Assembly: GCF_020614395.1 (NCBI RefSeq)
Contig: NZ_CP085324.1
Coordinates: forward strand, 501,564-565,563
Origin: Salarchaeum japonicum
GTDB lineage: Archaea > Halobacteriota > Halobacteria > Halobacteriales > Halobacteriaceae
Direction: 5' to 3'
DNA: 64,000 nt
The position numbers were made by a program, and so were the translations under genes. Of the stretch, positions 6,063 through 50,365 are shown piece by piece; position 1 is the first letter of the stretch; each line of letters begins with the position of its first letter. The notes under the pieces are model-generated. The model saw only the letters and a list, made by a program, of their open reading frames with translations. It did no database searches and was not told where the DNA came from.

Positions 6063-6105
6063 CCACCAGAAGACACTTCCGCCTACTGACTGTTTCTCCG
6101 GGAAG

Positions 6106-8657: not shown

Positions 8658-8670
8658 GGCCTCGGCACTC
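8658..8670. repeat. Candidate left attachment site (13-base direct repeat copy 1)
   Basis: GGCCTCGGCACTC occurs here, 50 bases after the aIF1A stop and exactly where base composition drops, and again at 50317-50329 where it rises. The two copies are identical and in the same orientation. The site is not in a recognisable tRNA gene. Together with a tyrosine recombinase inside the bracket this suggests attL. Confidence 0.45.
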
Positions 8671-8857: not shown

Positions 8858-8976
8858 GCACTCGAACCAGTAACTATTACCGGCTTACGAAAGATTTTAT
8901 AGAAGAAAATTCGATTCTCACTCAAATCGATAGACTGCGAAGGGATGTCCTCTCAGATGCGCCCTATGTTGTGGAA
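8858..8976. repeat. Border direct repeat, copy 2
   Basis: Second copy of the roughly 118-base repeat (GCACTCGAACCAGTAACTAT to CCTATGTTGTGGAA). The outer 15 bases and the CAGATGCGCCCTATGT core are nearly unchanged, while the middle has diverged. The minus-strand frame is preserved here too (HRAH...RFE-stop). Confidence 0.7.
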
Positions 8977-15904: not shown

Positions 15905-16840
15905 ATGGGTGCTGAACCCGGTTCATCGAAAATCTATGAGAATAAGCACGACGAGGTCAACTACTTCATCACCCGGAAGAAGGCAACAGACCGCAGTACG
16001 AGAACACTCAACTCGTACAGCCGGGTTCTCCGTGAGTTCTATCACGACCAATTCCCAGACCTCAATCCCGACGAAATCAAAACAGGACACGTCGAGAATT
16101 ACGTAATCGCCTTAGACGAACGAGGTGTCTCGCAGAACTCGAAAAAGAAGTATCTCGAAGTCCTCTCCAGCTTCTACAATTATATGCTAAAACGGGACGA
16201 GTTCGAGTCTATCACGAGTAACCCCGCTGCGGTCGTGATGGAGGAGATATCTCGAGTTCGCCCTGACCGACCGGACTGTGCGACGTGGGAGAATGCCTGT
16301 AAACTCATCCATGCCATTCCAGACCCACGAGACAAAACTGTAGCCATCATCTTAGCGAAAACGGGAGCCCGTCTCCTCGAAGCTCTCTCAATCGAAGAGG
16401 ACGACGTAGACTTAGAGAAGGGATTCATCCGACTCCGAGAACGCAAAGGCGGAGGTCAGACTGTAGTACCCATTGACGACGAGACAATCTACGCTATCAA
16501 ACGCTATCAGTTCATCAACGTCGATTCCGATTCTCCGTATCTCTTCACGAGCAATCTGGGAGGGCGTCTCAGTAAAGAAAGAATCCGACGAGAAGTAAAA
16601 GCCGCAGCAGACCGCGCTGGCGTCGCCCCCAAGGAAGAACGGCGGTTCGAGAAGAAGTTCACACCTCATACGTTCCGAACGGTATTCACGACCCTGATGC
16701 GCAAGCAGGGGATGAAGCCGTACATTCTGAAATACATCCGTGGTGACGCCAAGACCGAGACGATGGACATCTATACTCGCATCGACCGGGATGATGCGAA
16801 AGAGGAGTACCTGAACTGCATCAAAGAAATCGGGTTGTAG
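15905..16840 (+). CDS. Tyrosine recombinase/integrase
   Basis: A 311-residue phage-type integrase. The N-terminal SAM-like core-binding domain spans residues about 15-100 (RTLNSYSRVLREFYHDQFPD). Catalytic residues are visible: Arg in AKTGARLLEALSIEEDD, Lys in RLRERKGGGQTVVPI, HTFR in KFTPHTFRTVFTTLMRKQG, and the nucleophile Tyr in TETMDIYTRIDRDD. The usual LGH before Tyr is replaced by IRGDA, a variation seen in archaeal Xer-like enzymes. It should catalyse insertion and excision of the surrounding element; the 13-base border repeats are candidate sites, although the gene lies well inside the island. Confidence 0.9.
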   Translation: MGAEPGSSKIYENKHDEVNYFITRKKATDRSTRTLNSYSRVLREFYHDQFPDLNPDEIKTGHVENYVIALDERGVSQNSKKKYLEVLSSFYNYMLKRDEFESITSNPAAVVMEEISRVRPDRPDCATWENACKLIHAIPDPRDKTVAIILAKTGARLLEALSIEEDDVDLEKGFIRLRERKGGGQTVVPIDDETIYAIKRYQFINVDSDSPYLFTSNLGGRLSKERIRREVKAAADRAGVAPKEERRFEKKFTPHTFRTVFTTLMRKQGMKPYILKYIRGDAKTETMDIYTRIDRDDAKEEYLNCIKEIGL

Positions 16841-27030: not shown

Positions 27031-27501
27031 TCAGTCTTCCAGGTCGTCGAGGAAGTCGTAGTAGAGTTCCAGGAACTCGTCCAGCTGGGGCTGAGGTTTG
27101 ATCTCGCTTCTGATCAGCCGAGAGCCTTTCTCGGCGTAACAGTTGAGCACCTGAATACCGTTATCGGAGAGTCGGGTGTTGCTTTCGGAGTCCAGCAGGT
27201 TCAGCATGAGTTGCCGGATTTCCTCTTTTTGACCCCAGGGGATCCCTTCGCGTTCAACCTCGGCTACGATTAGGGAGCCGTAGATCTCGTATTTCTGGTC
27301 GTCGTAGGCTGGGATGACGTAGTCAAGGAATTGCTGGCTTGCGGGTGGTTCTTCGTCGTCTGGGACGCGGCTTCGGGCTTTAATCCCGGCCATGGCGGAG
27401 AGGTAGTATTTGTCCCAGTCGGTTTCCAGTTCGTTGAGTGAACTGGCTTTGTTGATGTTCCCGAAGTAGCTGCGGGCCTCTTTGCTGAGTCTGAAGGACA
27501 T
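27031..27501 (-). CDS. Fourth Pbe-type gene: small helical protein (PbeD position)
   Basis: A 156-residue helical protein (MSFRLSKEARSYFGNINKAS; LGVQVLNCYAEKG-type C-terminal helices). It starts one base after the stop of the SMC-like ATPase and is the last gene of the phosphorothioation cluster. By position it corresponds to the fourth gene of the PbeABCD set in archaeal Dnd systems. No catalytic residue is apparent; it likely binds the ATPase. Confidence 0.55.
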   Translation of the reverse strand: MSFRLSKEARSYFGNINKASSLNELETDWDKYYLSAMAGIKARSRVPDDEEPPASQQFLDYVIPAYDDQKYEIYGSLIVAEVEREGIPWGQKEEIRQLMLNLLDSESNTRLSDNGIQVLNCYAEKGSRLIRSEIKPQPQLDEFLELYYDFLDDLED

Positions 27502-27502
27502 T

Positions 27503-29440
27503 TTAGGCCACCTCCTCCAGTTCTTCCTCTTCGGATTGGAAGTCCATGAAGTACTCTTTGTCCAGGCTTTTCTCGACTGCTCCCGGTGTCTCGGTTTTGT
27601 GAACGGTACAGTATTTGATGTCGCCAGAGTCCAGTTCGTCGACGAAGCGTTCCCGTTCCGAGGAGATCACGAAGATCACCAGTTGGTCGAACAGGTCGGA
27701 GATGATGGGTGCGACTTCTGCTCGTTTCTCGTAGTCAATACTGACTGCGGGGCTGTCGATGATGAATGGGACGTCGATAGCGGAGTCCTCGAATAGGGTG
27801 GAGAGGTATGCGTATGCGATTGACAGGCTCTGGCCTTCGGAGACGTCCTCTTTCCCCTTGATTTTGATCGAGTTGTCGATGTCCTCGATCTGGACCTGTG
27901 AGAGACCGAGGATTTTCTGCAGGCGCTGATTGGTTTCGTCGATCTGGTTTTGCTTCAGGGTGGAGAGGTATTCGTCGATGAAGTCGTCGAAGATGTCTTC
28001 GAGGATATCTGCTCGTTTCCCGAAGTTGACGGTGTTGCTGGCTTCTCGGACCCGTTCCTTCCGCTCCTCGACTTTTTGCCGGCAGAGGTGGATGTTGTTC
28101 TTCCAGTTCAGCCCGAGTTCCTCTCGCTCGTTCTTGTCGGTACTGGTCAGCTTCCGGAGTTCCTCTTCCTTCTGTTTCTTGTTCCGTTTCTCCTCCTGTT
28201 TCTCCTCGGTGATCTCTTGGAGGCGTTCGTTCATGTCCGGGTCGTCGAGGTCTACCCGGCCTTTCTCCTGCTTTTTCTGCTCCAAGTCCCCGCGTTTGTC
28301 TTCCAGGTCTTCGAACTTGTCTTCGTAGTCCTCAAAGTCAGGGATTCCACGCAGATCCTCCTTGAGAAGGTTGAGTACACCGATGTCTTCCTCAGAGAGG
28401 TAGTGGTCCGCGTTCTCCAGGATTTTCTCTGCGTGCTCTTCGTCGATCTCTCTTCCGCAGATGCATTTCGGTCGCTCAGATAGCTCGGTGAAGAACTCCT
28501 GGGAGGTCGGCTTAGGTAGTCCTATCACGTTCATTTTCTTCACCAGTTTCTCCATGTCGTCGTTGAAGTCTTCGTGGAGCTGACTGGGGTTCCGCATCAG
28601 GGATAGGACTTCGTCGGTAGAGTCTTCTATGTCGTTCCGGAGTTCCTGGATCTCACGGTCGAGGCGTTTGTCCTTCTCCAGTTGCTCTTGGTTCTCTGCC
28701 AGGATTTCACTGCGTTCTGTGCTGAGTGACTGGATTGCTTTGTCGTGCTCTTTGATCTCTGTCTTGAGGGTTGATTCGCGTCGTTCCAGCTCATCCAGTT
28801 TCTCTTTCGCAGTGTCCAGCCGGCCCTTCACGTTCCGGTACCCTTTCTCGCTGTTGACGCTGTCCTCGTCCTGACGTTCCTCAACCTCTTGCTCGATCTT
28901 GTTCCGCTGGTCTTCGAGACGGTTGAGGTAATTGACCGTCTTCAGGGCGTTCTCTGCTTCATCCTTCCCGGTCTGGATAAAGTCCTGCGTGAGCTCGCCG
29001 TTGAAGACGAACAAGTTGGCGAAGGATTCGTTGATGACTGTCCGGAGCTGAGTTGGCAGGGAGTGGCCCAGCATGTCTCCTCCGCCTACTTCGCTTGGAC
29101 GGATGGTCCGGTATTCGTATTCGTAGGTTTCATAGTCGAGATCTAAGCGGAAGGTGAACTGATCTCCGTTCGATTCAAAGTCTACCTCGAACGAGCCTTC
29201 GATTGCGTCGAACTCTTCGGGTTCAAGTGATTCAACAGTGAGTCCATCGTCCTCGTTGAGTTCCTTGCCGACAAGCACCGTCCGGATCAGATCCATGGTG
29301 GTGGTTTTCCCGGTGCCGTTCGGCATCTGGACAAGGGAGATGTGATGGGTATCTCCGTCTTCTCGGGTTAGGTCAATCTCCAGATCGTTGAACTCCCGGA
29401 TGTTCTTGTACCGGATTCCTTTGATTCTAAGATCCATCAA
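27503..29440 (-). CDS. SMC/Rad50-like ATPase with Zn-hook (PbeC position)
   Basis: A 645-residue protein: Walker A in LVQMPNGTGKTTTMDLIRTV (residues about 36-55), two long coiled-coil arms (DRLDTAKEKLDELERRESTL), a hook segment RPKCICGREIDEEH, ABC signature VSEGQSLSIAYAYLS and Walker B VPFIIDSPAVSIDYEK. This is the DndD/Rad50 type of DNA-linked ATPase. In a phosphorothioation cluster it is expected to survey unmodified DNA and gate the effector. Its start overlaps the preceding small gene by 14 bases. Confidence 0.85.
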   Translation of the reverse strand: MMDLRIKGIRYKNIREFNDLEIDLTREDGDTHHISLVQMPNGTGKTTTMDLIRTVLVGKELNEDDGLTVESLEPEEFDAIEGSFEVDFESNGDQFTFRLDLDYETYEYEYRTIRPSEVGGGDMLGHSLPTQLRTVINESFANLFVFNGELTQDFIQTGKDEAENALKTVNYLNRLEDQRNKIEQEVEERQDEDSVNSEKGYRNVKGRLDTAKEKLDELERRESTLKTEIKEHDKAIQSLSTERSEILAENQEQLEKDKRLDREIQELRNDIEDSTDEVLSLMRNPSQLHEDFNDDMEKLVKKMNVIGLPKPTSQEFFTELSERPKCICGREIDEEHAEKILENADHYLSEEDIGVLNLLKEDLRGIPDFEDYEDKFEDLEDKRGDLEQKKQEKGRVDLDDPDMNERLQEITEEKQEEKRNKKQKEEELRKLTSTDKNEREELGLNWKNNIHLCRQKVEERKERVREASNTVNFGKRADILEDIFDDFIDEYLSTLKQNQIDETNQRLQKILGLSQVQIEDIDNSIKIKGKEDVSEGQSLSIAYAYLSTLFEDSAIDVPFIIDSPAVSIDYEKRAEVAPIISDLFDQLVIFVISSERERFVDELDSGDIKYCTVHKTETPGAVEKSLDKEYFMDFQSEEEELEEVA

Positions 29441-29615
29441 GCTCCTCCTCGTCTTCGAGTTCGATTGTGTTGATCAGTCCGTGTAGGTCGTTTCCACCGA
29501 GATTGTTCTCCACGGTATTCTCGTAGAAGTTGAGAAACCGTTTCTTGACGTCGTCAGACTGATCATATTCTTCCATTACTTCCTCTGCGATTCGTTCGAC
29601 TTCAGGGCTTGCCAT
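29427..29615 (-). CDS. Small acidic helical protein (PbeB position)
   Basis: A 62-residue, all-helical acidic protein (MASPEVERIAEEVMEEYDQS). It lies between the helicase and the ATPase and overlaps the ATPase start by 14 bases, so the two are translated together. A very similar arrangement recurs at 49493. Possibly a subunit stabilising or loading the ATPase. Confidence 0.6.
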   Translation of the reverse strand: MASPEVERIAEEVMEEYDQSDDVKKRFLNFYENTVENNLGGNDLHGLINTIELEDEEELDGS

Positions 29616-29617
29616 AG

Positions 29618-31576
29618 TTAGTTGTCCTCCGTCTTTGTGACCTTGCTAAGGTTTGTGAGCCAGTCATACCGGATTTTGTCTGGGGGGATATCCACTTCGT
29701 CGTCTTCCGGTTCTTCTTCGATGTCACTTCTAACCACAAAGTCGACTATGTTAGCTGTTTTCCCAGGGTTCTCGGGATTGGTTCTGAGAGCTCTGCCGAT
29801 GCGCTGGATGGTGGTGCCTTTGGAGCGGTTGGATGTGAACAGGATAATGTTTTTGACTGATTTGATGTCGATGCCTTCGGAGATCGCTTTACTGCTGACG
29901 AGGGTGCCAATTTCTCCGTTCGAGAAGGCTTCGAGTGTTTCCTCAGGGTCTTCTCCGTAGTAGGTCCTGTAGCTCTTGGTGTGGTCGTGGATGATTTTCT
30001 GGACCTTGTGTCCGTATTCCTTGGTTTCGACGAATACGAGGGCGTCTTCCAGGACATCAGGGTTCTTCTCTAAGTATTCCCTGAAGACGGGGAGTTTCTC
30101 CTCCGAGGTTTTCCGGACCTTAGCCAGCATGATGTACAGCTGGCTTTTCGGGATGTTCGGGTTCTTCTGTTTGAGGCCTTTGAACTTCCCGAACGCTGCT
30201 TTCTGCTCCTCTTTGTCTTCTTCTGAGAGTTCGTAGAACAGGGGTGTGTAGTCGGTCTCGCAGAGGATTCCCCTCCTGATTGCGTCTTCAGCGGAGAACT
30301 CGTAGACTACAGGACCAACTTCGTCTCTGAGGAAGTCGTTTCGATCCGGGTCGTAGGGATCGAAGGGTGTGGCGCTGAGTCCGAGACGGTGTTTGAAAAC
30401 GTCAAGCTCCCCGGTGAGGTTGGCTTGCCTGGTGTCGCTGCCCATATTGTGGACTTCGTCTGCGATGAGCAGGCTTTGCTGAAGCTTGTTGTTGATGTCA
30501 CCGTCGATGGCCTCGTGGAGATTGTCGTAGGAGATTATCAGTGCCTCGAGCTTGTCCCTGTTCTTTGTCAGGAACTGCCCGAGGTCGTGGTTTCCTCCGT
30601 ATTCCTGGTAGATCCACATCTCATCGGCGCTGAAGTTTTCGGAGAGGGTGCCGTACCATTGATCCAAGAGATCGTTTCCTCTGGTGGCGACGACGACGTT
30701 CTCTACGCCCCCCTGTCTAAGAAGACGGTTCAGGATTTTGAGGGAGGTCCGTGTTTTCCCTGTACCGGTCGCCATATCGAGGATCCCGTGACCGCTTTCC
30801 AGGAACTTGTTTACAGCTACCTCTTGGTGCCTCCATCGGTAGGCACTGGTCATCTTCTTGGACTCCGAAGGGTTGTCGTACGGCCGGTCGTCGCTCCGTA
30901 GTTCCGCTATGTCGAGGGAAATGCTGTCGGGAAGTGAGATGCTGTGTACGCCCTGCTTCGCGTTGTCCCAGATCTCGTCGAATCGTTTTTCGTGTTGGTC
31001 GATTCTCTGAGCTTCTCTGTCGGACATCCAGGAGGCGAATACGGAGTAGGATTCGTAGTTGGAGAATCCTTTCCTACTGTCGTTCTGTGACCCGTGGAAG
31101 GCGATTTTGTCGTCGTTGGGGTCTCTGACGATCCCCCATTTGTCGTGGAAGTCGCCGGACAGGTTTTCCCCGGTAATTGCGATCCGGATGTCGAGGAGTC
31201 CGTCGGCGATCATCCAGGCGATGGTGTTCTGGGTTTCTTTTTCGAGTCCTTCCTCGATGTCGGAGACCATGTGGTTCAGCCGGTCGTACAGCTCCTGGTC
31301 TCGCTTTGCTTCTTCTCCTTTTTGTAGTGCTTCCCAGTCACCTTCCTCCAGGATGGGGCTGATGATCCATTTGGCTGTTCCGCCGTTTTCTGCAAGTCCT
31401 TTCAGCCCTCTTGCTGCGAACTGGAACCAGGAGCTGGTGAAGTAGCCGACACCTCGTTTGTATTCTTCTGCTACGCTCAGAGCGGGGTTGTAGAAATCCT
31501 CCGCGAAGTCAACATCGGATGTTTCTATCAGTAACGGGAGATCGAGGTCCCTCAACCCTTTGGGAGGGTCTGACAT
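29618..31576 (-). CDS. PLD-domain SF2 helicase (PbeA position)
   Basis: A 652-residue protein. The N-terminal 230 residues form a phospholipase-D-like domain with an HxK motif (FHDKWGIVRDPNDDKIAFHG, then SQNDSRKGF). The helicase core follows: motif I DMATGTGKTRTSLKIL, motif II LLIADEVHNMGS, motif III LGLSATPFDPYD, motif VI TIQRIGRALRTNPEN. PLD-SF2 fusions are used by defence systems to process or block DNA. Here it opens a four-gene operon behind dndA, separated from it by about 150 bases with its own control region. Confidence 0.88.
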   Translation of the reverse strand: MSDPPKGLRDLDLPLLIETSDVDFAEDFYNPALSVAEEYKRGVGYFTSSWFQFAARGLKGLAENGGTAKWIISPILEEGDWEALQKGEEAKRDQELYDRLNHMVSDIEEGLEKETQNTIAWMIADGLLDIRIAITGENLSGDFHDKWGIVRDPNDDKIAFHGSQNDSRKGFSNYESYSVFASWMSDREAQRIDQHEKRFDEIWDNAKQGVHSISLPDSISLDIAELRSDDRPYDNPSESKKMTSAYRWRHQEVAVNKFLESGHGILDMATGTGKTRTSLKILNRLLRQGGVENVVVATRGNDLLDQWYGTLSENFSADEMWIYQEYGGNHDLGQFLTKNRDKLEALIISYDNLHEAIDGDINNKLQQSLLIADEVHNMGSDTRQANLTGELDVFKHRLGLSATPFDPYDPDRNDFLRDEVGPVVYEFSAEDAIRRGILCETDYTPLFYELSEEDKEEQKAAFGKFKGLKQKNPNIPKSQLYIMLAKVRKTSEEKLPVFREYLEKNPDVLEDALVFVETKEYGHKVQKIIHDHTKSYRTYYGEDPEETLEAFSNGEIGTLVSSKAISEGIDIKSVKNIILFTSNRSKGTTIQRIGRALRTNPENPGKTANIVDFVVRSDIEEEPEDDEVDIPPDKIRYDWLTNLSKVTKTEDN

Positions 31577-31667
31577 CTAGTGTGATGGACGCTTACTGAC
31601 CATTTGAATCCTTTGCCGCCCTCCGGTTTTACAGACGGCGATTAATACAGTAGAAGAGTTAGTACAG

Positions 31668-31694
31668 CAATTAGTTGTATCAACCAATCAGTTG
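31668..31694. repeat. Direct repeat in the dndA/effector intergenic region
   Basis: CAATTAGTTG at 31668-31677 and CAATCAGTTG at 31685-31694 differ by one base and are 17 bases apart. They lie in the control region ahead of the PLD-helicase operon and behind the dndA stop, so they may bind a regulator of the effector genes. Confidence 0.3.
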
Positions 31695-31729
31695 CCAGGT
31701 GGGGGCTGGCTATTCCCCTGTCAGGCTTT

Positions 31730-32908
31730 TTAGAAGGTGAGGTTGCGGAGCCGGTTGACGATCTTGATTACTTCGTCAGTCGCGTACTCGATTTCTTCTC
31801 GGGTGTTGTCTTTCCCGAGTCCGAACCGGATTGCGTGGTGCCAGACCTCTTCGTCGTCGGTGATTGCCTGGAGTACGTGTGAGGCTTCGACTGTGCCGGT
31901 GGTACAGGCTGATCCTGCGGAGACGGCGATGTCCGGCTGCAGGTTTTTGACCAGGGCTTTGTTCTCTACTCCGGTGAAGCTGATGTTGAGGTTGTTAGGG
32001 ATCCGGTCTTCCGGGTGGCCGTTGAGGACGACGTCGTCCAGTTCGTCGTTCAGCCGGTCCCACATGTAGGAGGTGAGTTCATCGACGTGCTGACTCCGTT
32101 CCTCCAGTTTTTGATCCGCCATTTGCACGGCTTTTCCGAATCCGACGATTGCAGGGACGTTGAGCGTCCCGGAGCGCCAGCCTCGTTCGTGGCCTCCTCC
32201 GTGAAGTAACGGGTTGAGTTTGACTTTCGGGTTCCGTCTTCTGACGTAGAGTGCGCCGACGCCCTTCGGCCCGTAGATCTTGTGTGCGGAGATGGACATC
32301 AGGTCGATACCCATCTCTTCGACGTCGATAGGGAGGTAACCGAGTGCCTGGACTGCGTCGGTGTGGAAGAATACCTCGTTCTCTTTGGCGACTTCCCCGA
32401 TCTCCTTTATCGGAGCTATGGTGCCAATCTCGTTGTTGGCAGCCATGATGGAGATCAGGATGGTTTCGTCCCGGATTGCGTCCTGAATGTCTGCCGGGTC
32501 TACTTTCCCGTTTTCGTCGACGGGTAGGTAGGTGACGTCGAAGCCGTCTGTTTCCAGGTCTTCGCAGACTTCGAGTACTGCTTCGTGTTCGGTGACGGCG
32601 GTTATGATGTGGCTGCCTTTGTCGTTGTCATCTGCGTAGTCTGCTGCTCCTCTAATAGCCAGGTTGTCGGACTCGGTTGCTCCGCTGGTGAAGATGATTT
32701 CTTCTTCGCGGCAGTTTATTGCCTCCGAGACTCGTTCTCGGGCCTGGTTTACGGCCTGCTTCGCTTTTGCCCCGAATATGTGGTCTTCGCTGGCTGGGTT
32801 GCCGTAGCTTTCTGTGAAGTAGGGGGTCATCTCCTCAACGACCTTTTCGTCGACGGGTGTGGTGGCGTGGTGGTCGAGGTAGATGGGTGTGTCCACGTCA
32901 GAAGTCAT
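31730..32908 (-). CDS. dndA: DndA cysteine desulfurase
   Basis: A 392-residue PLP enzyme of the IscS/NifS class. The start is YLDHHATTPVDEKVVEEMTP; PLP-binding Lys is in SISAHKIYGPKGVGALYV; the persulfide Cys is in VSAGSACTTGTVEASH. It takes sulfur from cysteine and passes it to DndC for DNA phosphorothioation. Being fourth in the operon (C-D-E-A) matches the archaeal order, unlike the bacterial DndA-first order. It starts three bases after the dndE stop. Confidence 0.92.
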   Translation of the reverse strand: MTSDVDTPIYLDHHATTPVDEKVVEEMTPYFTESYGNPASEDHIFGAKAKQAVNQARERVSEAINCREEEIIFTSGATESDNLAIRGAADYADDNDKGSHIITAVTEHEAVLEVCEDLETDGFDVTYLPVDENGKVDPADIQDAIRDETILISIMAANNEIGTIAPIKEIGEVAKENEVFFHTDAVQALGYLPIDVEEMGIDLMSISAHKIYGPKGVGALYVRRRNPKVKLNPLLHGGGHERGWRSGTLNVPAIVGFGKAVQMADQKLEERSQHVDELTSYMWDRLNDELDDVVLNGHPEDRIPNNLNISFTGVENKALVKNLQPDIAVSAGSACTTGTVEASHVLQAITDDEEVWHHAIRFGLGKDNTREEIEYATDEVIKIVNRLRNLTF

Positions 32909-32911
32909 TAG

Positions 32912-33313
32912 CTATCCTTCCTGTTTGGCTTCCAGTCCTTTTATCTCTCCGGGAACGAGGTCGTAGAAGTCGCTTAGGTCGCTTACGTTACCTGCTACTC
33001 GTTCGACGCCTCGGTTGAGGTGTGCGACGAACTCTTCGTACAGGTCCTCTTCGGGGTCTTTCCCTTCCTGGATGAGTCGTTCTTTCAGGAGGGCCATGTA
33101 GAGGGTGTCGTGTTCTCCGAGCAGGGTGTACCGGTTGAAGGTTTGCCCGTCAGTGTCGTACTGCTGCGGGTTTGGTGGCCGTGGCTCGTTGAGGGAGTAG
33201 CAGAAGCCAATTCTGCCGAGGTAGTTGGGTGTCATCCCGGTGTTGGCTTTCAGCATTTTCAGCTGGTTGGTGGCGTCGCTGTCGATGGTGATCCGGTTGA
33301 ATTTCTGGCTCAT
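32912..33313 (-). CDS. dndE: DndE
   Basis: A 133-residue protein with the DndE core: FNRITIDSDATNQLKMLKAN, TGMTPNYLGRIGFCYSLNEP. DndE is needed for phosphorothioate insertion and binds nicked DNA in bacteria. The start overlaps the dndD stop by four bases (ATGA). Confidence 0.88.
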   Translation of the reverse strand: MSQKFNRITIDSDATNQLKMLKANTGMTPNYLGRIGFCYSLNEPRPPNPQQYDTDGQTFNRYTLLGEHDTLYMALLKERLIQEGKDPEEDLYEEFVAHLNRGVERVAGNVSDLSDFYDLVPGEIKGLEAKQEG

Positions 33314-35337
33314 GATGTGATCTCCCCGAGTAATCGCTGATCTTCGTCGTCTTCGGTCCAGAAGTAGCCTTCCGAGGGAACGGTTTTCCCTTCCTCTTCG
33401 TCGTACTCCAAGCGGTATGCCTGGGAGATGTAGCCTTCCAGTTTCTGGTACTGGTGGTCGTCGATCTCCGTGTCGGTGGAGAAGATGATCACCTGGTGTG
33501 CTGCTTCTGGGAAGAAGTGGGTGATCAGGTTGTCTCTGTGATCGTTGTCGAGGCGGCCGAGCGGTGTGTCGACGATGAAGGGTAGTGGCCGGTCGGAGAT
33601 CTCTGCCAGTGCCCAGAGGAGGGATGTGGCGAAGATCTGCCGTTCTCCGGCTGAGAGTTCTGTGTGCGGCTTGCTGTTGCCGTGGATGGTCTTGATCGTG
33701 ATGTCGAGGTTTTCTTCGTCGATCTCGATTTTGTCGTAGAACTCGCCTTTGTTGGAGAGGGTGATGTAGCGTTCGCTGAGTTTCGACTCCAGTTTCCGCA
33801 GCTTCTTCTTGGCGAGTTCTTCGCGGAAGTCCTTTACCGTGTTCCGGACGTCGGAGGCGAGGTCTGCTCGTTCGGAGACATCTTCGACACGGGACTTCTG
33901 CTCAAGCTTGTTTTCGACCTCGTTCTCTTTCCGCTCTAACCGGGTCTGTGCTGTACTGATTTCTTCCTCCAGTTCTTCCAGCCGCGATTTGATGGCTCCC
34001 TTCTCCTCGGTAAGCTCGTTGAGGTCGTCGATCAGCGGTGAGATGACTTCCTGGTCAGGTGCCTTGTTGAGGCCGGATTCGACCTCTTGGAGTTCCCTGG
34101 TTTTGTCTTCCAGACTCTCGGTTAGGTCCGCAAGCTGGTCTGGGACATCGTTCAGGGCTCTGTCGGTAAGCGAGTAGATCTCCTGTCGCTGTGCCTCCGA
34201 GAACTGGTGGGCGAGTTCCGGCTCCTCGTCTTCGATTTCCAGCCGGCTTTTGAGTTTATCCTGGATGCGGTCAGAGAGCTGGCCGACTTGGTCTTCCGGC
34301 ATATCCATCTCTTCCCAGACATCCTCGTCACCGAGTACGTCGTCGAGTTCGTCGGTGAGCTCGTTCCTGGCGGTCGCCCGGTTCTGCCGTTCGGTCTCAG
34401 TCTTCAACCGGTCAACTACGGACTCACAGAGATCCGGTGCCAGGGTGAACGGGTACGCGCCTTCCGCAAGATCCCGGATCTGGTCTTCGAGTTGCTCGAT
34501 ACTGGCGTTCAGTTCAGCTCGGCGCTCCTTGAGTTCCTCTCGTTTGTCGGCGTAGGATCCACCCTCTTGGGCGATCTTCGATTCCTTGCTGTCGATCTCG
34601 TCCTCCAGCTCTGCCAGTCTTTGCTCCTTCTCTGCTCTCTCCTGTTTCAGGTCCTCAAACTCCTGCTCGATTTCGTCTCGCTGGTCCTGAAGCTCCTGGA
34701 TTTCGTCGTTGATGCCTTCTACACCGCTTTCTTCGAGCTTCTGGGAGATGTAGATGGATAAGTCGGTGTCCAGGCGTTCAATCAGGTCGAGGCCGAGGAG
34801 TGAGTACATCGAGTCCTCAAAGTCGGCGTCAGATTCGACTGCTGACGCAAGTTCCTGAATTTTCTCCCCGTCGAAGAAGAACAGTTGGGAGACTCCTGGT
34901 GGAACCAGTTCTTTCAGGAAGTCCTGCCACTGGTCCTCGTTGAGTTCGGATGGGATCTCTCCGTTCCTCCGGACTTTCAGGTCCTCGACGATGCTTTTGC
35001 CACGGTCGCGCCAGGAACGCTCCACGGAGTAGTGGTCCACTTCGCCCATGTGGGAGTACTCGAACTCGAGTCGGACGGCTGCTGTATCCGCTTTGCCGTC
35101 TGGGTATTCGTGGAGCTTGCTGCGGATTGCTTGTTCGTAGTCTTTCCTGGCGGTGCGCCGGCCGAGGGAGGATTTGCCGTGGAGGCAGAATCCGATTGCT
35201 TCGAATAGCGTGGTTTTCCCTGCCCCGTTTTTCCCGCCGAACAGTACGATGGGAGAGTCTTCAGTTGAGCTAAGCTCGATTTCGTTGCGTCCTCGGTAGG
35301 GGCCGAAGTCTGTGATGATTAGCTTGTTGATTCTCAT
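33310..35337 (-). CDS. dndD: DndD SMC-like ATPase
   Basis: A 675-residue ATPase: Walker A in VLFGGKNGAGKTTLFEAIGF, long coiled arms (ELQDQRDEIEQEFEDLKQER), ABC signature HTELSAGERQIFATSLLWAL, Walker B LPFIVDTPLGRLDNDH. No CxxC hook is visible, unlike the two other SMC-like proteins in the window. DndD supplies ATP-dependent DNA manipulation during phosphorothioation. It is 13 bases downstream of dndC. Confidence 0.93.
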   Translation of the reverse strand: MRINKLIITDFGPYRGRNEIELSSTEDSPIVLFGGKNGAGKTTLFEAIGFCLHGKSSLGRRTARKDYEQAIRSKLHEYPDGKADTAAVRLEFEYSHMGEVDHYSVERSWRDRGKSIVEDLKVRRNGEIPSELNEDQWQDFLKELVPPGVSQLFFFDGEKIQELASAVESDADFEDSMYSLLGLDLIERLDTDLSIYISQKLEESGVEGINDEIQELQDQRDEIEQEFEDLKQERAEKEQRLAELEDEIDSKESKIAQEGGSYADKREELKERRAELNASIEQLEDQIRDLAEGAYPFTLAPDLCESVVDRLKTETERQNRATARNELTDELDDVLGDEDVWEEMDMPEDQVGQLSDRIQDKLKSRLEIEDEEPELAHQFSEAQRQEIYSLTDRALNDVPDQLADLTESLEDKTRELQEVESGLNKAPDQEVISPLIDDLNELTEEKGAIKSRLEELEEEISTAQTRLERKENEVENKLEQKSRVEDVSERADLASDVRNTVKDFREELAKKKLRKLESKLSERYITLSNKGEFYDKIEIDEENLDITIKTIHGNSKPHTELSAGERQIFATSLLWALAEISDRPLPFIVDTPLGRLDNDHRDNLITHFFPEAAHQVIIFSTDTEIDDHQYQKLEGYISQAYRLEYDEEEGKTVPSEGYFWTEDDEDQRLLGEITS

Positions 35338-35350
35338 GTAGCCTTGTCCG

Positions 35351-36832
35351 TTAGACGTCTACTCCGTCGTATTCCCACGCTTCTATACGGTCTTCACCTT
35401 CGAGTTCTGCGACGATTTCCGACATGTCTCGCCAGTCTTCTCGCATGACTTTGTCCAGCTCGCTGTAGATGGATGCGCGGCGTTTCATGCCGTAGTGCTG
35501 GAACTCGGTGTCGAGGAGGCGTTTGACGAGTTCGGCAGGGACGTCGTGTTCTTCACAGACCTCGTTGAGGACTTCTGCTTCCAGCTCGCCGAAGGAGCCG
35601 AGGTCGTCGTGGACCCAGTCTAGGTCGTCGTCCATGACCTCGTTGTAGATGTTTGGTACGGAGTCCGCCCAGTCAGCTCGTTCTTCGCGCCAGAGACGCC
35701 GGATCTCTCTGAGTTCTTCCTCCCTGATCAGATCCATTTCCTCGTCTTCAGGGATTTTCTCGTTGACCTCTTTCTGGGTCTCCAGGAGTTTCCGGAGCAG
35801 GTCTTTGCAGAACTCGAACTTGTGGGCGCGGGGGATGATGCCGTCACTGCCGTTGGTCTTCTCTTTGACGTAGCCGTGTTGACGGCCTTTGACCATCCGG
35901 TAGTTCGGCTTCTTCTCGGGGTCCTGCGTTTCTTTGAGGAAGTCACGGAACTCGAGGAGGGGTTCCATCCATTCGTCGCCCTCGTCGATCATGTTCTCCA
36001 TCGCCTTGTCTTCGGAGACGACGGTGCAGGTCCAGCAACCGAATCGGCTGTTACCACAGGATGGGGTTTTCGTGTCGATCACCATCGGGCACTCGTCGTC
36101 CGCTTCCTGGTAGAGTGCGGCGAGATCTCGGTTGTTCTTACCCCAGGGGTTGTCGACGGCTTGGATGAGGTAGGTCCAGACGTCGTCGACGATCCAGTCC
36201 TCGATAGGTGTGTAGACGAAGGCGTTGGCGAACTTGTTGTGCCGTGAGAGGACGGTGCCGTCGATGCTGTGCATCTCCATTACCTGTTCTCGGGTGGCGG
36301 ATTCTGCTTTCCGTGCTCCGAGAATCACCACTACTTCGCCGTGTTCGGAGACCTGGTTCTCGATGAATCGGTCTGCAGGGTCGATTTTGAGGCGTTCCGT
36401 ACACCAGCGGAAGTTCTGGTTGGGTGCCGGGTAGCCGCGTCCGATGAGGTTGACCCAGAAGGAGTCGTCAACCTTGGGGGTGACCTTGTGGGCGGTGAAG
36501 GGCAGATTTTTCTTTTCTGCGTACTCGTTGATATTTTCCAGAGTAGAGATGATGTGGTTGACGATTTTCGGCGTCTCCACTAAAGTATCACTTGAGATAA
36601 CATGGATCGGTTTCTGCCTCTTCTCTTCTGGAAGGTCTTCGATTGCGTACCAAATTAGCTGGAGGGCAGTGGTGGAGTCCTTGCCGCCACTGTAGCCGAT
36701 AACCCAGGGGCGGTCATCCGCCAGATAGGTTTCCTGTATCTCCCCGTAGATGTCTTCGAGAGAACGGTTGTCGAAAACGGACTCGCCTTTTTCCTGGCCA
36801 GTCTTCGCAACCTCTAAATTATCTGTACTCAT
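35351..36832 (-). CDS. dndC: DndC PAPS-reductase-type sulfurtransferase
   Basis: A 493-residue protein with the PP-loop WVIGYSGGKDSTTALQLIWY, FRWCTERLKIDPADR, and the Fe-S cluster cysteines in DTKTPSCGNSRFGCWTCTVV. DndC activates the DNA backbone with ATP and transfers sulfur from DndA. It is the first gene of the C-D-E-A operon and has normal length for the family. Confidence 0.95.
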   Translation of the reverse strand: MSTDNLEVAKTGQEKGESVFDNRSLEDIYGEIQETYLADDRPWVIGYSGGKDSTTALQLIWYAIEDLPEEKRQKPIHVISSDTLVETPKIVNHIISTLENINEYAEKKNLPFTAHKVTPKVDDSFWVNLIGRGYPAPNQNFRWCTERLKIDPADRFIENQVSEHGEVVVILGARKAESATREQVMEMHSIDGTVLSRHNKFANAFVYTPIEDWIVDDVWTYLIQAVDNPWGKNNRDLAALYQEADDECPMVIDTKTPSCGNSRFGCWTCTVVSEDKAMENMIDEGDEWMEPLLEFRDFLKETQDPEKKPNYRMVKGRQHGYVKEKTNGSDGIIPRAHKFEFCKDLLRKLLETQKEVNEKIPEDEEMDLIREEELREIRRLWREERADWADSVPNIYNEVMDDDLDWVHDDLGSFGELEAEVLNEVCEEHDVPAELVKRLLDTEFQHYGMKRRASIYSELDKVMREDWRDMSEIVAELEGEDRIEAWEYDGVDV

Positions 36833-36914
36833 GATGATATCCTCTTGGTAAGATTGCTGTTCGGGAGATACTTGTATCTACCCGTACCTACCGGCAGATT
36901 GACGAGTGGCCCCG

Positions 36915-37340
36915 CTATGATCCGTTGGTTTTCCATTCTATATTCCCTGCGTTGACCTCCGATTTTTCTACCCTAATAGCGCCCTGCTCAACGGCTTGCT
37001 CGAGTGATAGTTTGTCTTTCATTAGGTAGATATCGTGGTTCCGGCGTTGCTTTCTCATTACTGAGTTGCTTAGTATCGCGTTTGAATCTGTTTCTTCGTC
37101 TGCGACGACACAGTACTCCTCTGGGGAGTCCTCTATCACCAGTTCGTAGAAGTAACTGTCCAGAGTTTGTTGTACCTCTTTCAGGTCCTCTTCTGGGACT
37201 TTGAAACGATATTTGTCCCTACTGTAGTACTTTTTGAGCTGGTTGAAGAGCTGTTCTTCGTCGAAGTACGCTGTGAACAAGTATGTGTTCCCGAAGTCGA
37301 ATGCTGTTATCTCCTCCGTGTCGACGTTGAAGCTGGGCAT
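36915..37340 (-). CDS. Hypothetical protein upstream of dndC
   Basis: A 141-residue protein (MPSFNVDTEEITAFDFGNTY), soluble, alpha/beta, with one Cys. It is 82 bases upstream of dndC in the same direction. It does not look like DndB, the usual repressor of the operon. It may be a regulator or unrelated. Confidence 0.55.
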   Translation of the reverse strand: MPSFNVDTEEITAFDFGNTYLFTAYFDEEQLFNQLKKYYSRDKYRFKVPEEDLKEVQQTLDSYFYELVIEDSPEEYCVVADEETDSNAILSNSVMRKQRRNHDIYLMKDKLSLEQAVEQGAIRVEKSEVNAGNIEWKTNGS

Positions 37341-45849: not shown

Positions 45850-46770
45850 ATGCCGCGAGTAGAATCGGAGTCTCTGGATTCCATCGACCCCGATCAAACG
45901 ATTTTCCGGTATATGAGCTTCTCAAAGTTTGTTAATCTCCTCAAGACGAGGGATCTTCATTTTCATCAGGCCGCAGATTTCGGTGACCGGTTTGAGGGGT
46001 CAGTCCCGGAGATCATAGAGGAGGCTCGTGAACTCGAGTACCAGCGGGCTGCAGAGAGAGGTGATTTACGACCGGAAGGACACGAGATCCACGCTGAGAT
46101 CAATAAGTGTCTTCGCCGGTTCACATACCTCAGCTGTTGGCATATGACAGACGAGGAGTCTGTGGCGATGTGGGAGCATTACGGAGGCTCTGAAGGAGCT
46201 GTTGCGATCAAAACTACGGTAGGGGAATTTAGCTCTGCGCTGAATACACGGGACAGCCCCGATATCTACTTCGGGGAAGTGGATTATCAGCCGTACAGTA
46301 GTGAACATGAGTCAACACCAGATGTCGATGACATCGATATTGAGGAGGAGCTGGATGACCGGTTCTTCCTCACTCGGGAGGCTCACTCGTTAGTTCCATT
46401 CGTCCACAAACGGCAAGGGTACGAGTACGAGCAGGAGATGCGGGGGATTATCCAGAATCCTCCAATCGATGAGGACCTGGACCAGACGAAGGTTGAGATC
46501 GACGGTGAGGTCATCGACGTGGACTTCAAGATCCACACTGAGCATGGGCCACGGTACCTGGATGCCACGAAAGAAAACGATCAGAAGGGTATCGATGTCC
46601 CGGTGTATCTGGACGGGTTAATTCAGAAGGTTCACACCGCGCCCGACGCCTCCAGCTGGTTCAAGGAAACTGTCGAGAAGGTTGTGGAAGATTGTGATCG
46701 GTTGATGCGGGATCACGATCCAGAGGAAATCTTAGAAGATTCGATTCTGGACGACGATCCCTCGTTCTAA
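45850..46770 (+). CDS. DUF2971 family protein
   Basis: A 306-residue protein with the DUF2971 pattern: IFRYMSFSKFVNLLKTRDLH, FHQAADFGDRFEGS, YLSCWHMTDEESVAMWEHYG and GAVAIKTTVGEF. DUF2971 proteins are frequent in bacterial and archaeal defence islands, with unproved activity. Its stop overlaps that of the convergent SMC cassette by four bases. Confidence 0.8.
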   Translation: MPRVESESLDSIDPDQTIFRYMSFSKFVNLLKTRDLHFHQAADFGDRFEGSVPEIIEEARELEYQRAAERGDLRPEGHEIHAEINKCLRRFTYLSCWHMTDEESVAMWEHYGGSEGAVAIKTTVGEFSSALNTRDSPDIYFGEVDYQPYSSEHESTPDVDDIDIEEELDDRFFLTREAHSLVPFVHKRQGYEYEQEMRGIIQNPPIDEDLDQTKVEIDGEVIDVDFKIHTEHGPRYLDATKENDQKGIDVPVYLDGLIQKVHTAPDASSWFKETVEKVVEDCDRLMRDHDPEEILEDSILDDDPSF

Positions 46771-47378
46771 TCTCCAGTCTGTATACGGCCGTCGTCTTCG
46801 CGGGTAGGGATCTGAGTGAGATCATCAGAGATATCTTCTATTTTTTCCTGCCAGAAGTCCTCCATCTGGTCGAAATACCTCTCCAAGTCTAACTGGGTCT
46901 GGCTATCCCACTGCTCTTTGATGATCTCCACTCCTTCGTCAGCATGTGCGACAACGAGGTTCCAGACATTCTCAGGAATCTCCTCGTTTTCGTTATCGGA
47001 GTGTGAGGCGAGTTCGATTGCGATAATCCGGTCTATCAGTTCGATAGTGTAGGCGTGGTCTTCGTTATTATCCAAGACTTGGTTGATGTCGGTGAAGCGG
47101 TGATAGGGGTCATCTTCTCCTGCTGGTACAGAATCATCCGGCGATCCTGATGTCTCAGACTCTTCATCGCTATTGTACCTTCTGTCAGCCTCTTCTTCTA
47201 TGAGTTCTCCATCGTCCTCGATGTACCCGATGACTAAGGAAGCAGAGAAGAGTCCGAAACCGGTGCTGAATGGGTATGTTTCGCCTTCTTCTGCCCCACC
47301 GATTTGCGGGCTCAGTTCTGCGTAGACGTCTTTCTTCCTGGTTTTCAAGTCTCGGGTGAGGTTTCGTACATTAGTCAT
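46767..47378 (-). CDS. Helical partner protein of the orphan SMC cassette
   Basis: A 203-residue acidic helical protein (MTNVRNLTRDLKTRKKDVYA; GLFSASLVIGYIEDDGELIE; a C-terminal helix DLERYFDQMEDFWQEKIEDI). Overlaps the ATPase stop by eight bases, so the two are coupled. It holds the same position as the 156-residue gene after the Pbe-type ATPase. No catalytic motif. Confidence 0.6.
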   Translation of the reverse strand: MTNVRNLTRDLKTRKKDVYAELSPQIGGAEEGETYPFSTGFGLFSASLVIGYIEDDGELIEEEADRRYNSDEESETSGSPDDSVPAGEDDPYHRFTDINQVLDNNEDHAYTIELIDRIIAIELASHSDNENEEIPENVWNLVVAHADEGVEIIKEQWDSQTQLDLERYFDQMEDFWQEKIEDISDDLTQIPTREDDGRIQTGD

Positions 47379-49503
47379 CTGCAGTCACCTCTTCTTCGCT
47401 TCCTGCGGTCACTCCCCTATCGAAGTGATCCGGGTCGTGGTCAACTATCTCGGATGTTTCGTCTCCTGTCTGAATGATATCGTGGTGGTCAGCGATTGCA
47501 TCCTGTTCTCTGAGAAGTTCGATATCTTCTTCTCTCAGTTCGTTGGGCTGGTAGAACACAACCACTTGATCGACGAACTCCGGGAGGTTTTCTATCAGGT
47601 TCTCTTTGTGGTCCCCATCTAACCGGGCGATCGGAGTGTCGATCAGGATAGGTGCATCACGGGAGGAGAACTGGGCCAGTCCAGCGATGAAGGCGTATGC
47701 AATGATCTGTCGTGCGCCCCTACTCGGATCTTGATCGGGGATGGTGAATGTCCCGTCGTCAGTTTTGATCCTGAGTTGGTAGTTCTCATGGATGCTAAGG
47801 CCCTCATAGACCTCATTGTTCGTCATTTTCATGAACAGCGTGGAGGTCTTATCTTGGACGGAATCACGTCTCTCGTCTACGTACTCATCCTTTGCATCCA
47901 CGAACGCCGATTTGGCTTGTTTAGCGACTTCGATTAATTCTTGGTACCGTTCTTCTTCCTCGCTCGCACCTTCCATCTCCTCCAGTTGGCTTTCCAGATC
48001 GCTAACCTTCTCTTCCTGATCGGAGATGTCGTCCTTCAAGGACTCAAGTTCAACTTTCAGGCGCTCTATCTCCCGGTTGACTTCTTCGAGCTCCTCTCTG
48101 ATTTCGTCGACTTCGTCGGTTTCGAGTTCGGCGTTTTCTATAGTCTCTTCCAGACGCTCTATGCGCCGCATCCGTTTTGTCCGGTCCTGTTCAAGCCCGT
48201 CAATTTGAGAGGTGAGGAACTCGAATTGAGCTTTCTCGTGGCCCAGGTCGTACTCTTCCTCATCAGTTTGTGCTTGCAGACCGTCGACTAGCTGGTCGAT
48301 GTATTCGGCTTCGTCAGTGGATTCATTTCTTGCTTCGTCCAGTCTGTCTCGGAAGTCAGCAAGGGGTATATCTTCGATATTTTGACCGCAGACGTAACAG
48401 TCCTCAGGCACCTCATCTATCGTGTCTTGGAGGACTTCGATTATTCCACCAGGAGAGTCTAATGCGACAGTAGATCCGACTTGTTCTGCGGCGACTGCAC
48501 CTGCTATCGGCCCGAATCGGTCGTAAATTGCCTGCCGTTTCTTTCTGTTCTCCTCTAACTGGGATTCGATGCAGGGAGTTAGGTCGTCTATCTTGTCTTG
48601 TGAGAGATATTCGCGGGCTTTGTCGACGTTGTGAGCGCCGTATAGCTCAACTCGGGTTTCAATCAGCTGGTGATACTTTTCCCGGATGTCTCCTGCTTCA
48701 GCAAGCCGTTCTTCTACGTCGCTTTTCTCGTCGCGTTTGTCCTCCAGCTTGGACTGCTTCTCCTCTTGTTCTTTTTTGTACTCTTCGAGGAGGGTACGTT
48801 CTTCTTCAAGCTCATCTTTGGTCTCCCGGTATTCTTCGGCTTCTGAGTGGGCTTCCTGGAACTTTTCCTGATAGTGTTTGATTCCACGTTTTTCCAGGTC
48901 CGTCTCGGCTTTACGGAGTTCTTCGATGCCGAGGACCAGTTCGATTGCTTCTCGGACATCGGCGTCTTGCTGGCCGAATCTTTCGGCGTATTCGTCGATT
49001 TGTTCTCCGTCGAAAATGAAGAAGTGAGATGCGTCTTCTGGAAGAATACCGTCTCGGAACTCTCGGTAGTCGGTGATATCGTCGTCGCCTCTGGTATCGA
49101 TGATTATGCCGTCTTCTTCGTCCTCATCATCTACCTCTTTCTCTACGACGACATAGTGTTCGTCGACCTCCCTCTCTGATTTGGTATCGGCCTGGGAAAA
49201 TTCGAGGACTCGTTTGATCTCGTAGTCCCGGCCGTTATGTGCGAAGGAGATGGTGACTGCGGTTTCTCCGTCACCTTCTATAGCTGCTCTCCGGTTAATA
49301 CAGTAGTCTTGTTTCTTCTCTCTGTTTGGTCCGCCATTACTGTCGAAGTCGTAGAGGCAGAAGCGAATAGATTCGAGTAATGCGGTTTTCCCTCGGTCGT
49401 TTTTTGCTCCGAAGAGGGTGACGCCACTTTCGTCGCTGAAATGAATGGTGTCCTCTCCGTAGAACGGCTTGAAATTCTGGAGGGTTACTGATTCAAGCTC
49501 CAT
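47371..49503 (-). CDS. Orphan SMC/Rad50-like ATPase with Zn-hook
   Basis: A 710-residue protein: Walker A-like LFGAKNDRGKTALLESIRFC (residues about 31-50; Arg replaces the usual small residue), coiled arms (EEYRETKDELEEERTLLEEY; ELEEVNREIERLKVELESLK), Zn-hook EDCYVCGQNIEDIPL, a degenerate signature DPSRGARQIIAYAFIAGL, and Walker B APILIDTPIARLDGDHKENL. It resembles DndD in the C-terminal block but lacks Dnd neighbours. Starts 11 bases inside the preceding small gene. Likely the DNA-sensing motor of an anti-element system. Confidence 0.8.
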   Translation of the reverse strand: MELESVTLQNFKPFYGEDTIHFSDESGVTLFGAKNDRGKTALLESIRFCLYDFDSNGGPNREKKQDYCINRRAAIEGDGETAVTISFAHNGRDYEIKRVLEFSQADTKSEREVDEHYVVVEKEVDDEDEEDGIIIDTRGDDDITDYREFRDGILPEDASHFFIFDGEQIDEYAERFGQQDADVREAIELVLGIEELRKAETDLEKRGIKHYQEKFQEAHSEAEEYRETKDELEEERTLLEEYKKEQEEKQSKLEDKRDEKSDVEERLAEAGDIREKYHQLIETRVELYGAHNVDKAREYLSQDKIDDLTPCIESQLEENRKKRQAIYDRFGPIAGAVAAEQVGSTVALDSPGGIIEVLQDTIDEVPEDCYVCGQNIEDIPLADFRDRLDEARNESTDEAEYIDQLVDGLQAQTDEEEYDLGHEKAQFEFLTSQIDGLEQDRTKRMRRIERLEETIENAELETDEVDEIREELEEVNREIERLKVELESLKDDISDQEEKVSDLESQLEEMEGASEEEERYQELIEVAKQAKSAFVDAKDEYVDERRDSVQDKTSTLFMKMTNNEVYEGLSIHENYQLRIKTDDGTFTIPDQDPSRGARQIIAYAFIAGLAQFSSRDAPILIDTPIARLDGDHKENLIENLPEFVDQVVVFYQPNELREEDIELLREQDAIADHHDIIQTGDETSEIVDHDPDHFDRGVTAGSEEEVTADD

Positions 49504-49696
49504 TTTCCTCGTCTACGTGGTTTTCTAGAGCTGATTGAATCCCATCAGTGATTCCGTGACGTAGTTCCATAGTAGAAAGATCGTCCTCGAGATCGTAGAT
49601 TTCGAGCAGAAGCTCCTCTGTGATGGCTTCTCGGTTCTCTGCTTCCTGCCGAAGAAGCCGCTTGATTTGATCTTCCTCTTCTTCTGCTGCTCCCAT
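49493..49696 (-). CDS. Small acidic helical protein of the orphan SMC cassette
   Basis: A 67-residue acidic helical protein (MGAAEEEEDQIKRLLRQEAE; SALENHVDEENGA). It opens the three-gene operon and overlaps the ATPase by 11 bases. Size, charge and overlap match the 62-residue gene at 29427, though sequence likeness is weak. Confidence 0.6.
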   Translation of the reverse strand: MGAAEEEEDQIKRLLRQEAENREAITEELLLEIYDLEDDLSTMELRHGITDGIQSALENHVDEENGA

Positions 49697-50267: not shown

Positions 50268-50365
50268 TAAGCGGACGTGCGTGTTGCTTTCCGCCTATGC
50301 TTGGCACCAAAGGTGTGGCCTCGGCACTCATAGGGCTCGTCGTTCCGCGGGTGCCAGCCCGGGTC
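50268..50365 (+). ncRNA. Candidate structured RNA at the right island border
   Basis: After a TATA-like CTTACTAAG, the sequence CCTATG...CATAGG encloses GCACC-AAA-GGTGT, and TGGCACC can alternatively pair with GGTGCCA further on. The block is GC-rich, has no open frame, and holds the right copy of the 13-base border repeat. It could be a chromosomal small RNA used as integration target, as tRNA genes are for other elements. Strand and ends are guesses; nothing here identifies an RNA family. Confidence 0.3.
50317..50329. repeat. Candidate right attachment site (13-base direct repeat copy 2)
   Basis: GGCCTCGGCACTC, identical to 8658-8670 and in the same orientation, about 110 bases before the first chromosomal gene on the right. 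The composition change lies roughly 50 bases to its left. Confidence 0.45.

What the first reader, a model, noticed from the sequence alone, without database searches (positions are those of the whole stretch)
46767..49696. Orphan three-gene SMC cassette that mimics the Pbe-type tail without Dnd genes
Small acidic helical protein (67 aa), Zn-hook SMC-like ATPase (710 aa) and helical partner (203 aa) overlap by 11 and 8 bases. The Dnd-linked trio (62, 645, 156 aa) has the same order and the same start overlap at the first junction (14 bases). The ATPase has an unusual Walker A (DRGKT) and a degenerate signature (SRGARQ). A stand-alone defence or plasmid-sensing system built on the same plan is plausible and I know of no name for it.
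Basis: partly seen in the sequence, partly recalled or inferred. Interest (0 to 1): 0.7.

Follow-up and report, generated by a model that had tools for sequence, protein, structure and literature searches.

The report
PbeBCD defence genes lacking PbeA
Three overlapping archaeal genes are a known kind of anti-virus module (PbeBCD) that here lacks its usual helicase/nuclease partner PbeA; comparing it with relatives shows that its tiny first protein matches the piece of the DNA-sulfur enzyme DndC that clips onto the related ATPase DndD, which gives a job to a protein that had none.

Summary
The trio is real: 67, 710 and 203 aa, overlapping by 11 and 8 bases. It is not an unnamed mimic. It is PbeB-PbeC-PbeD of the haloarchaeal PbeABCD family (PADLOC 4e-10, 4e-138, 4e-16), and its PbeC falls inside a 14-member clade (support 100/99). 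The "unusual" Walker A and signature are family-wide. DndCDEA plus a complete second, distant Pbe module lies 10 kb away in the same 41.7-kb integrated element, bounded by exact 13-bp repeats.

What is unusual is that PbeA is missing. It sits beside PbeC in all 13 other clade members and in 43 of 44 related loci. The loss is derived. The trio stays open and keeps its catalytic motifs, but evolves fastest in its clade, and PbeD has lost family-invariant residues.

A finding I did not see in the literature I could search: PbeB is homologous to the C-terminal segment of DndC (profile match E about 1e-10, reciprocal), which published work shows docks on the DndD head. PbeBCD is thus laid out like DndCDE without the sulfurtransferase. 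Best reading: an accessory, PbeA-less PT-linked module; decay is the main rival; stand-alone defence is possible but unsupported.

The parts
49493..49696 (-). pbeB (67 aa): stand-alone homologue of the DndC C-terminal segment that docks on DndD
   Evidence: PADLOC PbeB 4.4e-10; homology of the family to the DndC tail
49523..49663 (-). PbeB residues 12-58, aligned to E. coli DndC 439-483; I33/E37/R46 correspond to DndC L458/E462/R471
   Evidence: mutants from PMC12193691
47371..49503 (-). pbeC (710 aa): Rad50-like ABC ATPase with Zn-hook
   Evidence: PADLOC PbeC 3.8e-138; Pfam AAA_23 2.9e-17; tree; AF2 model pLDDT 75 with Rad50/SMC matches in PDB
49384..49410 (-). PbeC Walker A, GAKNDRGKT (residues 32-40), family-typical
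   Evidence: alignment A1
48388..48399 (-). PbeC Zn-hook C369-Y-V-C372 (CxxC; CxC in the 10 aligned relatives)
   Evidence: alignment A1
47707..47727 (-). PbeC ABC-signature region PSRGARQ (residues 593-599), family-typical PSxGxxQ
   Evidence: alignment A1
47617..47649 (-). PbeC Walker B / D-loop ILIDTPIARLD (residues 619-629)
   Evidence: alignment A1
46767..47378 (-). pbeD (203 aa): DndE-cognate by published reannotation; most diverged member, with acidic insert
   Evidence: PADLOC PbeD 3.9e-16; 5 of 18 otherwise invariant residues changed
35351..36832 (-). dndC of the same element; residues 420-463 (35444-35575) are the PbeB-like docking segment
   Evidence: PADLOC DndC 2.6e-204
33310..35337 (-). 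dndD
   Evidence: PADLOC DndD 2.8e-209
32912..33313 (-). dndE
   Evidence: PF08870 6.5e-24
31730..32908 (-). dndA cysteine desulfurase
   Evidence: PADLOC DndA 1.7e-172
29618..31576 (-). pbeA of the second Pbe module (type 2); the only full-length PbeA homologue found in the genome
   Evidence: PADLOC PbeA 8.3e-176; own-genome search
29427..29615 (-). type-2 pbeB-like small protein (62 aa)
   Evidence: position; homology to the DndC tail not significant
27503..29440 (-). type-2 pbeC
   Evidence: PADLOC PbeC 5.5e-25; separate clade, 100/100
27031..27501 (-). type-2 pbeD
   Evidence: position; orthologues in L052 and L058
8658..8670 (+). left boundary repeat GGCCTCGGCACTC of the 41.7-kb integrated element
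   Evidence: the same core flanks a different insert in the congeneric genome
50317..50329 (+). right boundary repeat GGCCTCGGCACTC
15905..16840 (+). tyrosine integrase of the element
   Evidence: PF00589 6.3e-22

Best explanation
The trio is a type-1 PbeBCD module that has lost its PbeA, carried as cargo at one end of a 41.7-kb integrated element that also holds DndCDEA and a complete type-2 PbeABCD. Shown: family membership, derived absence of PbeA, intact ORFs and ATPase motifs, and homology of PbeB to the DndC segment that binds the DndD head. Inferred: PbeC dimerises through its ATP heads like Rad50/DndD, PbeD sits on the coiled coil and reads DNA, and PbeB docks on the PbeC head where DndC would dock on DndD. 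The complex therefore scans DNA like DndCDE but cannot add sulfur; its head site serves signalling or recruitment of an effector instead. Here it most likely works as an accessory sensor that reads PT status laid down by the neighbouring DndCDEA, acting weakly alone or through PbeA of the type-2 module.
For: Profile hits to PbeB, PbeC and PbeD. Clade support 100/99 and nesting among PbeA-bearing, Dnd-linked systems. Two other genomes carry type-1 and type-2 Pbe genes beside one DndCDEA, Actinarchaeum halophilum and Halorubrum salsamenti, so sharing one PT mark has precedent. pbeBCD without pbeA still gave low-level SNJ1 resistance with dndCDEA, while pbeB, pbeC and pbeD were each essential (PMC6459918). 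PbeB versus DndC tail: hhalign E 5.8e-10 and 2.2e-11; archaeal DndC tails are the next hits after PbeBs among 5,233 six-frame ORFs; the reverse search of about 6,400 short ORFs gives type-1 PbeBs as 18 of the top 19. The docking residues map with the same spacing. A tail-less DndC with a separate tail ORF exists in viral contig L075. All 79 PbeC positions invariant across the 14 members are present, and the 13 changes at positions invariant in the other 13 avoid the catalytic motifs.
Against: No binding, expression or activity data. No PbeA1 remnant was found, so how and when PbeA was lost is unknown. The longest terminal branch in the clade (1.34 against 0.73 for the next) and changes at family-invariant PbeD residues also fit relaxed constraint. 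PbeA2 is only about 30% identical to PbeA1, so cross-partnering is speculative. The PbeD model was too poor to test the DndE fold, and PbeD and DndE profiles do not match by sequence.
Confidence: 0.5

Rival explanations
1. Remnant: the trio is what is left of a PbeABCD module that lost PbeA, is not functionally relevant now, and is on its way to decay.
For: PbeA is present in all 13 other clade members, so the loss is derived. Fastest branch in the clade. PbeD has lost 5 of 18 otherwise invariant residues and gained an acidic insert. A complete second Pbe module is present, so redundancy is plausible.
Against: Three intact overlapping ORFs despite 1.34 changes per column on the terminal branch. 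The head/coil conservation contrast is like that of intact systems (46-55% against 26%). PbeC keeps 86% of the residues invariant in the others, the same as the intact L053 system at 87%.
Confidence: 0.27
2. Stand-alone defence: without PbeA and without needing PT, the trio has become a Lamassu- or Wadjet-like SMC sensor acting on phage or plasmid DNA by itself or with a nearby gene.
For: Own upstream intergenic region, and Dnd genes 10 kb away. PADLOC LmuB profile hit 1.8e-31 and fold matches to Lamassu and JetABC heads. Many other Pbe loci in haloarchaea lack Dnd genes in the neighbourhood (also PMC6459918).
Against: No nuclease or effector in the trio. The LmuB hit is far weaker than PbeC (3.8e-138). 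No other PbeA-less type-1 trio was found in two overlapping draws of 394 genomes each, nor in genome contigs, plasmids or viral contigs. The dndCDEA cluster is in the same element.
Confidence: 0.15
3. Counter-defence: the mobile element uses PbeB as a DndC-tail decoy, or PbeBCD as an inactive competitor, to blunt a host Dnd-Pbe system.
For: PbeB is a stand-alone copy of the DndC docking segment, and the element moves between hosts.
Against: The element itself carries DndCDEA and type-2 Pbe, so it would inhibit its own system. PbeB was required for, not against, defence in the tested system (PMC6459918).
Confidence: 0.06

Closest known systems
PbeABCD (Xiong et al. 2019, PMC6459918), equal to the CxC ABC-ATPase/DndE system (Rakesh et al. 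2024, PMC10853773)
   Same: PbeB, PbeC and PbeD in the same order and of similar size; family-typical ATPase motifs; PbeC inside the haloarchaeal type-1 clade; DndCDEA in the same element
   Different: No PbeA at the locus; Zn-hook CxxC instead of CxC; PbeD with changed family-invariant residues and an acidic insert; own position about 10 kb from the dnd genes
DndCDE (PT-installing complex)
   Same: Parallel gene order docking segment - Rad50-like ATPase - DndE-type partner; PbeB homologous to the DndC segment that binds the DndD head
   Different: No PAPS-reductase-like sulfurtransferase domain, so no PT installation expected
Type-2 Pbe module of the same window and of Halorubrum trapanicum CBA1232 plasmid pCBA1232-02
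   Same: Same order and overlapping start of PbeC in PbeB; also sits by DndCDEA
   Different: Separate, deep clade (100/100); has its PbeA; PbeB sequence not significantly related to the DndC tail
Lamassu (LmuACB)
   Same: SMC-like ATPase with Zn-hook and small helical partner; weak profile and fold similarity
   Different: No LmuA effector; PbeC profiles score far higher

Membership tests
PbeABCD / CxC ABC-ATPase system | PbeC: Rad50-like ABC ATPase of the CxC clade with Zn-hook | tested here: met
   PADLOC 3.8e-138; clade 100/99; hook present but as CxxC
PbeABCD / CxC ABC-ATPase system | PbeD: DndE cognate encoded after PbeC | tested here: met
   PADLOC PbeD 3.9e-16 and alignment with 8 relatives
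PbeABCD / CxC ABC-ATPase system | PbeD has the DndE two-RHH fold | tested here: inconclusive
   AF2 model pLDDT 50.6; hhalign against DndE 2%
PbeABCD / CxC ABC-ATPase system | PbeB: small protein encoded before PbeC | tested here: met
   PADLOC 4.4e-10; alignment with 10 relatives
PbeABCD / CxC ABC-ATPase system | PbeA: HKD nuclease fused to SF2 helicase | tested here: not met
   No PbeA1 in the window or genome; only PbeA of the type-2 module, about 30% identical
PbeABCD / CxC ABC-ATPase system | PT-modification genes in the neighbourhood (often, not always) | tested here: met
   DndCDEA at 31730-36832 in the same element
PbeABCD / CxC ABC-ATPase system | PT-dependent antiviral activity | not testable with these tools
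   needs infection assays
DndCDE | DndC sulfurtransferase domain | tested here: not met
   PbeB is 67 aa and covers only the DndC tail
DndCDE | DndD-docking segment next to a DndD-type ATPase | tested here: met
   homology and gene order; binding itself not tested
Lamassu | LmuA effector with LmuB and LmuC | tested here: not met
   No PADLOC LmuA/LmuC hits in the trio; LmuB profile much weaker than PbeC

The most novel reading that the evidence does not exclude
PbeBCD is a catalytically stripped twin of DndCDE: PbeB is a free-standing DndC docking segment, so the ATPase head site that receives the sulfurtransferase in Dnd is used for sensing or effector control in Pbe, and in this element the twin works without PbeA as a minimal PT-status sensor.
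Probability: 0.3. Interest if true: 0.75.

Novelty: new variant of a known kind. Interest (0 to 1): 0.5.

Why it matters
PbeABCD is a working antiviral system whose mechanism is unresolved, and PbeB was described only as a small, rapidly evolving, mostly disordered protein of unknown role. Recognising PbeB as the DndC docking segment turns it into a testable part: it predicts where PbeB binds, which residues matter, and that PbeBCD and DndCDE are parallel machines, one writing the sulfur mark and one reading or enforcing it. A natural PbeA-less trio is also a ready test of what PbeBCD can do without the presumed nuclease.

Tried and rejected
A direct genome-contig scan with the single protein found nothing; the alignment query worked. 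Unusual Walker A and degenerate signature: rejected as family norms. PbeA1 remnant upstream of the trio or elsewhere in the genome: none found. A conserved link with fusexin Fsx1: Fsx1 was found in 7 of the 394 genomes drawn, and only the own genome and G255 also had a close PbeC (G255 on different contigs), so not a conserved link. Phage records: no match for a type-1 PbeC. PbeD structure: model too poor to search. PbeD-DndE by profile: no signal. Type-2 PbeB as DndC tail: not significant. Lamassu and Wadjet: rejected on profile rank and missing partners.
Full report
Observation. The three ORFs exist exactly as described on the minus strand (49493-49696, 47371-49503, 46767-47378; overlaps 11 and 8 bases).

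Identity. PADLOC profiles name the trio directly: PbeB 4.4e-10, PbeC 3.8e-138, PbeD 3.9e-16. The Dnd-linked trio of the window matches these models much more weakly (PbeC 5.5e-25; its 156-aa protein has no Pbe hit), so the orphan is the more typical haloarchaeal Pbe and the Dnd-linked one the distant type. Between them lie PbeA, DndA, DndE, DndD and DndC and a fusexin Fsx1 gene. The Walker A and signature are shared by all relatives aligned.

Neighbourhood. In a draw of 394 genomes of the class, 11 had a close PbeC (E at or below 1e-60); with three further loci from genome contigs the type-1 clade counts 14 members. In all 13 others PbeB-C-D follows a PbeA and DndCDEA lies close by. I then read PbeC-like loci of more distant types: 8 among the first regions, 3 viral contigs and 20 further haloarchaeal loci. 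Across all 44 loci a PbeA-type gene is adjacent in 43; the exception, L117, is a distant branch next to a 1,862-aa helicase gene. The window trio is thus the only PbeA-less member of its clade. The own genome holds no other full-length PbeA homologue than that of the type-2 module, about 30% identical; no PbeA-like ORF or tblastn match lies in the 600 bases upstream. Two other genomes have type-1 and type-2 Pbe genes beside one DndCDEA (L063 Actinarchaeum halophilum; L069 Halorubrum salsamenti, where the type-2 part is cut by the locus end).

Mobile element. Comparison with the congeneric genome G010 puts the borders at window 8658-8670 and 50317-50329, an exact 13-bp repeat GGCCTCGGCACTC that also flanks a different insert of about 3.2 kb at the same place in G010. 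The interior has a tyrosine integrase and G+C near 0.51 against about 0.70 outside. The trio is the last large operon before the right border. The dnd-Pbe2 block is 86% identical over 10.3 kb to Halorubrum trapanicum plasmid pCBA1232-02, which has no type-1 trio at the sensitivity used.

State of the genes. In a maximum-likelihood tree PbeC of the trio nests in the type-1 clade (100/99) beside PbeA-bearing members, with the longest tip (1.34 changes per column; next 0.73). It keeps 79 of 92 residues invariant in the other 13, the same as the intact L053 system (79 of 91), and none of the changes is in a catalytic motif. PbeD departs at 5 of 18 such positions and has an acidic insert. Inference: most of this divergence happened under selection for protein function, because neutral drift of that length would have broken the frames; whether selection still acts is not known. 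The AF2 model of PbeC (pLDDT 75) has an ATPase head split by two coiled-coil arms and matches Rad50 and SMC heads; the PbeD model is unusable.

PbeB is a DndC docking segment. The PADLOC scan gave weak DndC-tail hits for PbeB. A profile of 14 type-1 PbeBs, run against 5,233 six-frame ORFs of the first loci read, returned PbeBs first and archaeal DndC C-termini next (for the count). Profile-profile comparison gives 96.6% and 97.3% probability, E 5.8e-10 and 2.2e-11. In the reverse search, a DndC-tail profile ranks type-1 PbeBs as 18 of its top 19 among about 6,400 short ORFs; the window's own PbeB scores lower (8.2 bits). NCBIfam DndC models also touch several PbeBs at the same place. Published work on the E. 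coli B7A complex shows that the DndD head binds DndC 433-482 and that the triple change L458D/E462A/R471A breaks the interaction (PMC12193691). An E. coli DndC read here carries L458, E462 and R471, and the PbeB profile aligns to 439-483; the corresponding PbeB positions are I33, E37 (13 of 14 members) and R46 (all 14). In viral contig L075 a tail-less DndC is followed by a separate 85-aa tail ORF and then DndD (a frameshift in one contig cannot be excluded). The small proteins of other Pbe types also score above background with the PbeB profile, 27 of 28 in the top 1% of short ORFs, though the type-2 PbeB shows no significant match to the DndC tail. PMC10853773 treats this protein as an independently acquired, mostly disordered small protein; in the passages I searched I saw no mention of a DndC relation, and PMC12193691 does not mention Pbe at all.

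Mechanism. By analogy with DndCDE, where the DndD coiled-coil-2 holds DndE and the head holds DndC (PMC12193691), PbeC would hold PbeD on its arm and PbeB on its head: a DndCDE-like scanner without the sulfurtransferase. In the tested PbeABCD system pbeB, pbeC and pbeD are essential while loss of pbeA leaves weak protection (PMC6459918).

Limits. The two class-level draws of 394 genomes overlap heavily, so they are not independent samples. No metagenome scan was available. Binding, expression and function are untested.

Noticed in passing
window 43607-45466: Fusexin Fsx1 (NF053506, 2.3e-238) lies between the dnd-Pbe2 block and the trio in the same integrated element; 7 of 394 class genomes drawn have a homologue.
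   Followed up: partly
window 27066-37339: The DndCDEA-PbeABCD type-2 block is 86% identical in DNA over 10.3 kb to Halorubrum trapanicum plasmid pCBA1232-02, the similarity ending with the block, which suggests recent transfer.
   Followed up: partly
L075 4717-8161 and L073 6237-9823: Viral contigs carry DndC-DndD pairs; in L075 the DndC lacks its tail, which is encoded as a separate 85-aa ORF (5810-6067), with a weaker similar case in L073.
   Followed up: partly
L117 8369-10420: A PbeC-like ATPase with its small protein but no PbeA, next to an 1,862-aa helicase gene: a possible different system built on the same core.
   Followed up: no
window 13638-15026: GmrSD-type/HNH protein with PADLOC matches to NsnA and PD-T4-2_A in the left part of the element.
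   Followed up: no
window 45850-46770: DUF2971 protein convergent with pbeD, matching candidate defence family PDC-S31 (8.4e-16).
   Followed up: no
window 8665-8715 and 8858-8908: Two 51-bp copies, 84% alike and 193 bp apart, at the left end of the element, the first overlapping the boundary repeat.
   Followed up: no
window 39460-42354: A 964-aa protein upstream of Fsx1 with no Pfam or PADLOC match.
   Followed up: no
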